Source: Sulfurimonas sp. (GTDB lineage: Bacteria > Campylobacterota > Campylobacteria > Campylobacterales > Sulfurimonadaceae). Taken from it: DNA of 51,648 bases. A program made the translations under genes and the position numbers. The notes below the pieces were generated by a model, which worked only from the letters and a program-made list of their open reading frames with translations, made no database searches and was not told the DNA's origin. Below are positions 3,507 to 5,731 of the stretch, piece after piece (positions within the stretch are counted from its first letter, which is position 1; the number at the start of each line of letters is the position of its first letter). The stretch covers positions 1 through 51,648 of the forward strand of contig JALSLQ010000046.1 in the NCBI GenBank assembly GCA_026988235.1. Reading direction: 5' to 3'.

Positions 3507-3741
3507 GCCTATATGCCATCAAGTTAGGTGGCTTTACGGAACCCGTACTTTAGTGCGGGCTTTATGTCTTTGAAGACTAAGGCCTAGGTTAAAACCTAGG
3601 TTCCAAGAAAAACTAAAGCTTTTTTCTTATTTCTTATAGTGCCGGCAGTTGCAATACTCTTGCCACTCTCAGCCCGCACTAAAGTACGGATTTCGAAAAA
3701 GATGCTTGATTTAATGCCGCTGGGACTAAAGTACGGGTTCC
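3507..3741. repeat. REP/REPIN-like hairpin cluster A
   Basis: This block between hpf and recG carries small hairpins of one design: GGAA, a 7-bp stem, loop TTTA, and the complementary stem. Copy 1 (+): GGAA 3538-3541, CCCGTAC 3542-3548, TTTA 3549-3552, GTGCGGG 3553-3559. Copy 2 (-): CCTAGGT/ACCTAGG at 3583-3600 with GGAA from 3601-3604. Copy 3 (-): TCCGTAC/GTGCGGG at 3673-3690. Copy 4 (-): 3720-3741, with a degraded 3' arm, overlapping the recG stop. A half copy lies near 3638-3646. The linker CTTGCCACTCTCAG (about 3658-3672) recurs in cluster B. No gene is visible here. Confidence 0.8.
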
Positions 3742-5537
3742 GAAAAAGTTTGTAAATCCTTTTTCACTTCTGCTACTATGGCTTCATCTTCAGCAAAATC
3801 TACCCATTGAAATTGGCTTCCACTTTGGACAAGTCCTTTGAGTAAATCTCCACTTTTTCTAAATTTTAAATCTAAATTGGCTATGTCAAACCCACTTTTT
3901 GTATGTATAAATTCATCTAATCGCTCAGATTTACTCTTGTTTGTATACAAATAACAATACCCTTTTAGTCCTGTACGGCTCACTCGTCCACGAAGTTGAT
4001 GCAGTGTAGAGAGTCCCAGACGCTCTGCTCCTACTATTACAACCGTACTTAAACGGGGTAGAGATATACCGACTTCTACAACTGTTGTTGCTATCAATAT
4101 ATCGCCTTTTTCTCGAAAATCCAGCAGTACCTGTTCTTTGTCTTTGTCTTTTCCATGCGTAACATAAACATTGTCAAAATTTTTCTCCCAATACCCTCGT
4201 GCTTCCTCAATACTTTGATAATCAAAAGCTTCACTCTCTTGCACTAAAGGGTAAACCAATAAAACTTGATTATTTTTTACAATTTCAGCCTTTACATGTA
4301 AGAGTAATTCTTGAAAATCATTTTTGTGTATCACTTTTGAATCTATATCTTTTGTAAAGGGTGTCGTTGTGATGAGACTTACATCTATGTGCGCACTCTC
4401 TATCATTGCCTGTGTTCGGGGAATTGGCGTTGCCGAAAACTGAATAAAATGCGGTTTGCGTTCCTGCTCTACTACCAATTTTTCAAGCATATTTCTCTGC
4501 TTAGTACCAAAACGATGCTGCTCATCGACCATAATGAGTGAAGCCTGTGGCAGTTCTCTAAAAAGTAAAGCATGCGTACCAATGATAAAATCATACTCGT
4601 CTAAATCTGTTTTTTTTGTTTTATTTGTCACAAGCATAATCTTTAATTTAGGAAGATATTTTTGTGCTTCTTCAAACAATTGATTTGCCAAAATTGTCGT
4701 GGGTGCCATTAAAAGAGAACGGTTTGGCATATTCATATATGCTGCTGCCAAAATTACCATCGTTTTACCGCTTCCAACATCACCTACAACCATGCGTTTT
4801 GCCGCCACATCTTTTTTCATGTCCTTATGTATATCTTCTATGGCTGCAAGCTGTTCATCTGTCAGTGTAAAGGGAAGTATTTTACTCCAAGGTTTATACG
4901 CCTTTGCTCCAGATGAAAGAGACTGAAAATAACGCCGTTTTCCTGCAAGTAACTGCATATAAGCAAAAAGTTCTGTATATTTAAGTGCTCTAAGATATTT
5001 TTCGCTTAACTCATTCCTATTGAGTATTTCATCAGTTGGAAAATGAAGTTGTAACAGGAGTTGTACTATATCTTCAGGGAGCTTTACATGTAAGAGATTT
5101 TCACGCGTCACAAGGCTTGCAACAAGGCGTTGCATAACATCATTTCGCAGAGCTGTTTTATATTTTGGCGTTATTTTTCCGATTTGTGTAATTTTTTTAG
5201 GCATACTCATAGAACAATGCCCCTGTTTACAGTCAATAACACCATAATAATAATCTCGCGCACCCACTTGAAACTGATGGAGCATATAAGGCTTCGGACG
5301 AAAAAGCACCCCTTGAACAGTATGTCCAAGATTGTGGGCAAAAAAAGTTATTTGAATGGAATTAGGTGCTTTGTACACAGACTCAACTGTTGCATCAATG
5401 AGTTGTGCTTTTTGTGCTATCAAACTCGCATGCAGTCTGTAATCTTCATAAGAGTGCGGTACATGTAACGCAAGTTCTATGACTGAATTTATGCCAAGTT
5501 TTTGAAACTTTGCTACTTGATCTTTTGTAAGTTGCAT
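3726..5537 (-). CDS. recG: ATP-dependent DNA helicase RecG
   Basis: RecG is a double-strand DNA translocase that remodels stalled forks and Holliday junctions. The 603-residue protein is shorter than the E. coli enzyme (about 690) because of a reduced N-terminal wedge region, usual in Campylobacterota. Visible motifs are Walker A GDVGSGKT (252-259), the DEQH box (338-341) followed by R-F-G, S-A-T-P-I-P-R-T, and the RecG-type motif VI L-H-Q-L-R-G-R-V-S-R. The last codons (TCG GAA CCC GTA CTT TAG) are supplied by a REP-like repeat, so the terminal S-E-P-V-L is repeat-derived. ATG at 5537 follows a 26-codon leader ORF by 6 bases. Two TTACATGTAA palindromes lie at 4292 and 5084, both read L-H-V. 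Confidence 0.95.
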   Translation of the reverse strand: MQLTKDQVAKFQKLGINSVIELALHVPHSYEDYRLHASLIAQKAQLIDATVESVYKAPNSIQITFFAHNLGHTVQGVLFRPKPYMLHQFQVGARDYYYGVIDCKQGHCSMSMPKKITQIGKITPKYKTALRNDVMQRLVASLVTRENLLHVKLPEDIVQLLLQLHFPTDEILNRNELSEKYLRALKYTELFAYMQLLAGKRRYFQSLSSGAKAYKPWSKILPFTLTDEQLAAIEDIHKDMKKDVAAKRMVVGDVGSGKTMVILAAAYMNMPNRSLLMAPTTILANQLFEEAQKYLPKLKIMLVTNKTKKTDLDEYDFIIGTHALLFRELPQASLIMVDEQHRFGTKQRNMLEKLVVEQERKPHFIQFSATPIPRTQAMIESAHIDVSLITTTPFTKDIDSKVIHKNDFQELLLHVKAEIVKNNQVLLVYPLVQESEAFDYQSIEEARGYWEKNFDNVYVTHGKDKDKEQVLLDFREKGDILIATTVVEVGISLPRLSTVVIVGAERLGLSTLHQLRGRVSRTGLKGYCYLYTNKSKSERLDEFIHTKSGFDIANLDLKFRKSGDLLKGLVQSGSQFQWVDFAEDEAIVAEVKKDLQTFSEPVL

Positions 5538-5543
5538 GCTATG

Positions 5544-5624
5544 TTAGCTTTTGTCTTCTTCTAAGTTTTTCATAATTTGCCTTTTTGTGTTATAATCCGT
5601 CTCAGGAATTATAAGATATTGCAT
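5544..5624 (-). CDS. 26-codon leader ORF upstream of recG
   Basis: A short ORF beginning M-Q-Y-L-I-I-P-E and ending in a charged N-L-E-E-D-K-S is preceded by AAAGGAGGT six bases before the ATG, the strongest Shine-Dalgarno sequence I saw in the window. Its stop is six bases upstream of the recG start, which suggests coupled translation. It lacks the run of regulatory codons typical of amino-acid attenuators. It might be a small protein in its own right, a translational coupler for recG, or the remnant of a longer gene; the sequence does not decide. The Shine-Dalgarno and start codon lie inside a predicted hairpin, described separately. Confidence 0.6.
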   Translation of the reverse strand: MQYLIIPETDYNTKRQIMKNLEEDKS

Positions 5625-5684
5625 CTTAACCTCCTTTCGACGGATTTGTCCTACCGAGTAATCGGTAGGAACACTCACATCATA
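5594..5684 (-). promoter_or_regulatory. Structured leader and promoter of the recG transcript
   Basis: Reading the minus strand, a TATGAT -10 box (5684-5679) is followed by a 9-bp hairpin with a 4-base loop (5670-5649). Next comes an 8-bp stem (GACGGATT at 5639-5646 with AATCCGTC at 5594-5601, plus-strand notation) that encloses a second nested hairpin (TAAGAT 5612-5617 with ATCTTA 5623-5628) and an AGGA/TCCT pairing (5604-5607, 5632-5635). The Shine-Dalgarno and most of the ATG of the leader ORF fall in paired positions, so the fold could block translation. Confidence 0.55.
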
Positions 5685-5731
5685 ACAAAAAATCAAAAAA
5701 TTTCTAAAAAATATGACAAAATGAAATAAAA

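What the first reader, a model, noticed from the sequence alone, without database searches (positions are those of the whole stretch)
5544..5684. recG leader hairpin can sequester the Shine-Dalgarno and start of a 26-codon ORF
An 8-bp stem (5594-5601 with 5639-5646) encloses a nested 6-bp hairpin and an AGGA/TCCT pairing. The AAAGGAGGT ribosome-binding site and AUG of the leader ORF fall in this fold, and the ORF stops six bases before recG. A second stable 9-bp hairpin (5649-5670) lies right after the likely transcription start. Such a design suggests control of recG translation by temperature, ligand, or helicase/ribosome coupling. Structured regulated leaders of recG are not known to me.
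Basis: partly seen in the sequence, partly recalled or inferred. Interest (0 to 1): 0.65.

Follow-up and report, generated by a model that had tools for sequence, protein, structure and literature searches.

The report
Broken toxin-like leader before recG
In front of the DNA-repair gene recG, this Sulfurimonas genome carries the shortened remnant of an intricately folded RNA that in related bacteria hides the start of a tiny membrane peptide and faces a promoter on the opposite strand, which looks like a self-silenced toxin gene rather than a switch for recG.

Summary
In detail: the 5' hairpin, the 8-bp stem, the AGGA/TCCT pairing, the start-codon hairpin and the 26-codon ORF are all at the stated places, and the fold is far stronger than chance (z -5.5). 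Its meaning changes once relatives are read. The window is Sulfurimonas. Of 110 recG upstream regions read, about 30, plus two more found by peptide search, carry a recognisable copy of one ~170-nt module (32 in all). It has a 5' hairpin, a long-range stem that pairs the Shine-Dalgarno with an anti-SD, a start-codon hairpin, a conserved 25-codon hydrophobic ORF1, a 3' hairpin, an antisense -10 box (28/32 copies) and then a 35-codon membrane ORF2. The long-range stem covaries (0 of 20,000 partner swaps reach the observed pairing). The window copy has lost 80 nt of ORF1 and most of ORF2, so the "26-codon ORF" is a fusion of leftovers. One divergent copy lies away from recG. Best reading: an eroded copy of an undescribed type I toxin-antitoxin-like module that works like Helicobacter AapA/IsoA. 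It is not shown to be a member of that family; toxicity and the antisense RNA are untested. Thermosensor or ligand control of recG is not supported; coupling of the fused ORF to recG remains possible.

The parts
5713..5727 (.). Palindrome ATTTCATTTTGTCAT (genus form ATTGCANNNTGCAAT) upstream of the recG promoter
   Evidence: A similar palindrome in 84 of 110 recG upstream regions; near-unique in the genomes checked
5679..5686 (-). Predicted sense -10 box GTTATGAT; start expected at about 5675-5671
   Evidence: Promoter scan; matches the gnTAnaAT sigma70 -10 motif of Epsilonproteobacteria 4-8 nt before the start (PMC3847290) at all but one fixed position; a -10-like box lies just before the hairpin in nearly all relatives
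5649..5670 (-). 5' terminal hairpin, 9 bp
   Evidence: present with different sequences in relatives
5639..5646 (-). 5' arm of the long-range stem, AATCCGTC
   Evidence: Pairs with 5594-5601; own-partner pairing against swapped partners in 27 loci, 0 of 20,000 permutations
5629..5637 (-). Shine-Dalgarno AAAGGAGGT of ORF1, AGGA of it paired with the anti-SD
5611..5627 (-). Start-codon hairpin TAAGAT-GCAAT-ATCTTA around AUG 5624-5622
   Evidence: conserved as TTAAGATG..CATCTTAA in class A relatives
5544..5624 (-). 26-codon ORF: first codons of ORF1 fused in frame with remains of ORF2
   Evidence: 80-nt internal deletion relative to G094 after ATCTTA, and a second deletion in ORF2
5604..5607 (-). 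Anti-SD TCCT, part of the 3' arm of the long-range stem
5594..5601 (-). 3' arm of the long-range stem, GACGGATT
5589..5596 (+). Predicted antisense -10 box GTTATAAT; start expected at about 5600-5604, reading back across the leader
   Evidence: 28 of 32 module copies have gnTAnaAT here against 1.5% of 34-nt windows in loci without the module
5544..5573 (-). Remnant of ORF2 (MKNLEEDKS) with its own SD AAAAAGG at 5580-5586, outside the fold
   Evidence: ORF2 family alignment, distribution, alignment to G094
3726..5537 (-). recG (603 aa), no SD of its own; likely translated by coupling to the ORF before it
   Evidence: NCBIfam NF008169 RecG, 848.7 bits, cut-off 555; 0 of 25 module loci against 43 of 68 module-free loci have an SD-like motif before recG

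Best explanation
The leader is an eroded copy of a small two-peptide module found in scattered members of the genus Sulfurimonas. In intact copies a transcript starts at a 5' hairpin and folds into a four-helix structure closed by a long-range stem. In that stem a 3' anti-SD covers the Shine-Dalgarno of ORF1, and a second hairpin covers its start codon, so the full-length RNA is translationally silent. A promoter on the opposite strand, at the 3' arm of the stem, would make an antisense RNA across ORF1. ORF1 encodes a 25-residue hydrophobic peptide. The arrangement is that of a type I toxin-antitoxin: a folded, silent toxin mRNA that becomes translatable only after processing or refolding, with an antisense RNA removing the active form. 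Shown by sequence: the fold, its covariation, purifying selection on ORF1, the conserved antisense -10 box, repeated disruption of ORF1, and one copy away from recG. Inferred: that the antisense RNA exists, that the peptide is toxic, and that processing activates it. In the window ORF1 has lost 80 nt, so no such peptide can be made and what is left is a fossil inside the recG operon leader.
For: Homologous full-length modules upstream of recG in relatives. Elements fold with z -7.5 to -10.8. Long-range arms pair with their own partner at -12.9 kcal/mol on average against -5.9 for swapped partners, 0 of 20,000 permutations. Class A ORF1 is 25 codons in 21 loci, with synonymous changes in excess (dN/dS-like 0.28) and a hydrophobic, mostly +2 product. 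Antisense gnTAnaAT in 28 of 32 copies against 1.5% of control windows. ORF1 is broken in 7 of 32 copies. The module is scattered on the recG tree, at least 20 changes. A divergent ORF1+ORF2 copy with the same four-helix fold lies away from recG in G122. The window copy equals G094's full-length copy minus 80 nt in ORF1 and part of ORF2, with identical stem arms. Translation block by a long-distance interaction plus SD-hiding hairpins is the described mechanism of aapA/IsoA (PMC6733600).
Against: All copies but one lie directly before recG, which a freely acting toxin-antitoxin would not need. No intrinsic terminator follows the stem on the sense strand, so the RNA would run on into ORF2 and recG unless processed; an obvious antisense terminator is also missing. 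No transcript data, no toxicity test. Neither peptide matches a family in Pfam or NCBIfam, nor does the RNA match Rfam.
Confidence: 0.62

Rival explanations
1. A dedicated regulatory leader of the recG operon: the folded RNA and the small ORFs set how many ribosomes reach recG, by coupling or attenuation.
For: All copies but one sit between a promoter and recG; the upstream neighbour changes while the leader stays with recG; recG has no SD in 25 of 25 module loci checked against 43 of 68 others with one; several deletions spared both stem arms.
Against: The fold hides ORF1, not the SD of ORF2 to which recG is coupled; most congeners' recG lacks the leader; one copy has no recG; the peptide itself is under purifying selection; the opposing -10 box is not needed for this.
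Confidence: 0.2
2. In this genome the remnant has been put to a new use: the deletions placed the hidden start in one frame that ends 6 nt before recG, so opening of the fold now feeds ribosomes into recG.
For: In-frame fusion of ORF1 start and ORF2 end; recG lacks its own SD; the stem is still intact.
Against: The ORF2 start at 5573 with an exposed SD enters the same frame without opening the fold; no relative shares the fusion, so conservation cannot be tested; a random deletion keeps an open path often enough.
Confidence: 0.12
3. ORF1 and ORF2 form a pair of small membrane peptides in which ORF2, not an antisense RNA, is the antidote or partner.
For: Class A modules come with ORF2 directly behind ORF1, including the copy away from recG.
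Against: ORF2 also occurs without ORF1 and class B modules lack ORF2; heavy RNA folding and the antisense promoter would be superfluous.
Confidence: 0.1
4. An RNA thermometer or ligand-binding riboswitch for recG.
For: SD hidden in a hairpin.
Against: No Rfam match; very stable GC-containing stems; the hidden start is not recG's; absent from most relatives.
Confidence: 0.03

Closest known systems
AapA/IsoA type I toxin-antitoxin family of Helicobacter (PMC6733600, PMC8322730)
   Same: Same phylum; short hydrophobic peptide; stable 5' stem-loop; SD blocked by a 5'-3' long-distance interaction plus short SD-hiding hairpins near the start; promoter on the opposite strand; covariation; disrupted 'ghost' copies.
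   Different: IsoA starts inside the aapA ORF, here the antisense -10 lies behind ORF1 in the 3' arm; no sense terminator follows; a second small ORF and recG follow in the same direction; one copy per genome at recG; no AapA-like sequence was matched; toxicity unknown.
Other type I toxins with long-range mRNA folding, such as hok/sok (own knowledge)
   Same: Silent full-length mRNA closed by a long-range pairing, antisense RNA, small membrane peptide.
   Different: No sequence relation tested or seen; different gene order; no mok-like overlapping frame.
Leader-peptide attenuators and uORF coupling (for example PMC8092293)
   Same: Small ORF in a structured leader ahead of a coupled gene.
   Different: No terminator/antiterminator switch; peptide conserved as a hydrophobic peptide; structure hides the small ORF and leaves the next SD free.

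Membership tests
Type I toxin-antitoxin (general) | Small hydrophobic peptide gene under selection as protein | tested here: met
   25-codon ORF1 in 21 loci, dN/dS-like 0.28 (overlapping RNA structure is a caveat); hydrophobic. Not met by the window copy itself
Type I toxin-antitoxin (general) | Toxin mRNA with sequestered SD | tested here: met
   SD paired with an anti-SD in a covarying long-range stem
Type I toxin-antitoxin (general) | Antisense RNA overlapping the toxin mRNA | tested here: inconclusive
   Conserved antisense -10 box in 28 of 32 copies; no transcript data and no clear terminator
Type I toxin-antitoxin (general) | Peptide toxic when expressed, neutralised by the antisense RNA | not testable with these tools
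   Needs expression experiments
AapA/IsoA family | 5'-3' long-distance interaction covering the SD, plus SD-hiding hairpins near the start | tested here: met
   described in PMC6733600
AapA/IsoA family | Antisense promoter inside the toxin ORF, about 80-nt antisense RNA | tested here: not met
   Here the -10 box lies downstream of ORF1 in the 3' arm; IsoA3 -10 lies in the ORF (PMC6733600)
AapA/IsoA family | Toxin sequence related to AapA | not tested
   No AapA sequence was compared directly; no Pfam or NCBIfam match, no PDB match for class B
AapA/IsoA family | Several copies per chromosome | tested here: not met
   One copy per genome, two in G122 only
Known Rfam leader or riboswitch | Covariance-model match | tested here: not met
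   No hit at gathering score in the window; below-threshold hits only in relatives

The most novel reading that the evidence does not exclude
An undescribed toxin-antitoxin-like module of Sulfurimonas that lives in the leader of recG and combines three controls (covarying long-range mRNA fold, opposing antisense promoter, a second small membrane protein as partner or antidote), so that a membrane peptide is tied to transcription of a DNA-repair helicase.
Probability: 0.13. Interest if true: 0.75.

Novelty: new variant of a known kind. Interest (0 to 1): 0.5.

Why it matters
If right, AapA-like control of a hidden peptide by a long-range mRNA fold is not confined to Helicobacter and its animal-associated relatives but also occurs, with unrelated-looking peptides and an altered layout, in free-living vent and sediment Sulfurimonas, where it sits in the operon leader of a DNA-repair helicase. 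The many natural intact, peptide-swapped and broken copies make it a good system for asking how such modules are gained, lost and domesticated. For the window itself the practical point is that an impressive fold with a small ORF can be a fossil.

Tried and rejected
Known RNA family: no Rfam match at gathering score in the window; weak hits in relatives (microRNA precursors, PrrB/RsmZ, CrcZ) are far below their cut-offs. Known peptide family: none for ORF1; class B has no PDB sequence match. Spread beyond the genus: ORF1 class A absent from other genera sampled; class B hits outside the genus lie inside unrelated coding genes; no viral contig carries class A; broadened ORF2 hits outside the genus are weak and mostly inside long frames. 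Intrinsic terminator around the leader: none found, so attenuation was dropped. RNAalifold on a MAFFT alignment underestimates the stem because the arms slide in register, so the partner-swap test was used instead; an RNA covariance model was not built for the same reason. The ATTGCANNNTGCAAT palindrome was followed as a possible repair operator, but its few other sites gave no repair regulon.

Full report
Observation. The 141-nt strand folds to -38.9 kcal/mol, z -5.48, with no shuffle as good. A -10-like box (TATGAT 5684-5679) puts the predicted start just before the hairpin. In C. jejuni and H. pylori the sigma70 motif is gnTAnaAT, 4-8 nt before the start (PMC3847290).

Where it is. The window is contig C46 of a 1.8-Mb draft genome; 122 of 135 genomes of the genus, this one included, have a matching recG. 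The nearest named records with this recG are Sulfurimonas. The gene after the leader is RecG by NCBIfam.

What relatives show. I read the region upstream of recG in 110 genomes. About 30 carry recognisable copies of one module, and with two more (G094, G113) from the peptide search I worked with 32. A typical intact copy reads: promoter; 5' hairpin (sequence differs between copies); a stem arm; GGAGG; a start-codon hairpin; a 25-codon ORF1; a hairpin beginning at its stop codon; the other stem arm with an anti-SD; a TATAAT on the other strand; then ORF2, about 35 codons with a membrane segment and a charged tail, ending at recG. Class A ORF1 (consensus MKYLNIILKVLTIIYIIVKIFQELN) is intact in 21 of these copies. 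Four have a different, strongly cationic peptide, class B, in the same RNA frame, and seven, the window's included, are broken. Minimum-energy folds give the same four-helix structure closed by the long-range stem, with z -7.5 to -10.8 in the full-length copies tested.

Covariation. The stem arms differ widely between copies (AATCTAC/GTAGATT, AATCTGC/GCAGATT, TTGCCG/CGGCAA, TTCCAGACT/AGTCTGG, TTAACACGA/TCGTGTTAA and others). For 27 copies the own-partner duplex energy averages -12.9 kcal/mol, against -5.9 when partners are swapped; none of 20,000 permutations reaches it. Each duplex was free to choose its register, in own and swapped pairs alike, so the test does not depend on an alignment; relatedness between copies makes swapped partners fit better, so it is conservative.

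The peptide. Class A ORF1 differences are fewest at second and most at third codon positions (34/20/46% at positions 1/2/3) and the dN/dS-like ratio is 0.28; the overlapping RNA structure also constrains these bases, so this is supportive, not proof. The product is hydrophobic; class B is +8 to +9. The window's product MQYLIIPETDYNTKRQIMKNLEEDKS is neither. Against G094, which has the same stem arms, the window lacks 80 nt between ATCTTA and TAATTCC, and most of ORF2. So the 26-codon ORF is a fusion of the first ORF1 codons with leftovers. Other broken copies include L015 (stop at codon 2), L095 (no start codon), L045, L072, L011 and L093 (deletions).

The opposite strand. The 3' arm carries gnTAnaAT on the other strand in 28 of 32 copies; in 80 recG loci without the module only 1.5% of 34-nt windows have it. 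It is conserved also in class B copies that lack ORF2, so it is not explained by ORF2's ribosome-binding site. In the window it is GTTATAAT at 5589-5596, predicting an RNA that starts near 5600-5604 and runs back across the leader. This is a prediction; there are no transcript data and I found no clear terminator.

Is it a recG device? For: with the exception below, peptide and hairpin searches find the module only at recG (class B was searched by peptide only in an order-wide sample), and recG in module loci has no SD of its own (0 of 25, against 43 of 68 elsewhere), so it is likely coupled to ORF2. Against: the fold hides ORF1 and leaves the SD of ORF2 free; on a recG tree of 90 genomes the module is scattered with at least 20 changes, and sister genomes differ (G115 with, G116 without). 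G122 has a divergent copy of the whole ORF1-ORF2 unit at another place, with no recG behind it, with the same four-helix fold, z -4.35. That one copy is the best sign that the unit is self-contained; it rests on one contig of one draft genome. The window leader is 88% identical to that of G094 although the RecG proteins are only 70% identical, which fits strong constraint or exchange of the leader between lineages.

Mechanism and comparison. The nearest described system is AapA/IsoA of Helicobacter. There the full-length mRNA is kept silent by a 5'-3' long-distance interaction and by transient SD-hiding hairpins, and an antisense RNA removes the active form (PMC6733600; PMC8322730). The intact Sulfurimonas module has the matching anatomy but not the layout: the antisense -10 is behind the ORF, no terminator follows, a second ORF and recG follow. 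I therefore say it works like AapA/IsoA and do not file it as a member. Toxicity, the antisense RNA and activation by processing are inferred. Literature searches of the held library found no Sulfurimonas type I system and, among the titles listed, no described recG leader of this kind; absence there is weak evidence, since many papers are not held. Confidence: about 0.9 that the window feature is an eroded copy of this module, about 0.6 that the module is a type I toxin-antitoxin-like unit.

Noticed in passing
window 5713-5727; recG upstream regions in 84 of 110 loci: A palindrome of the form ATTGCANNNTGCAAT / ATGACANNNTGTCAT precedes the recG promoter across the genus and is near-unique in the genomes checked. 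It is often followed by a T-run, so it may be an operator or an AT-rich terminator of the upstream gene.
   Followed up: partly
L324 (G122:C60:28400-29700): Second, recG-unlinked ORF1-ORF2 module with peptides MKRDFIDTLLKVLKAIYLILQILKEF and MLEFIKSIDTEIILALIVIIQGYMHSNLVKRVKALEDEKVH, with a nitroreductase-like frame downstream on the other strand (the frame was read by eye).
   Followed up: partly
L013, L024, L085, L098: Class B: the same kind of leader fold with an unrelated, strongly cationic 24-residue peptide (LKRFTLKVRLKLKPFSLTIKVSGR type) and no ORF2; includes Sulfurimonas indica.
   Followed up: partly
L021, L051, L083, L086, L087, L108: ORF2 alone, without ORF1, directly before recG; ORF2 is a 35-residue membrane protein found almost only there.
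   Followed up: no
L325 and L077 (G069 contigs C333 and C37): The module is split between two contig ends in one draft genome, near ORF1 codon 13; assembly break or real rearrangement not decided.
   Followed up: no
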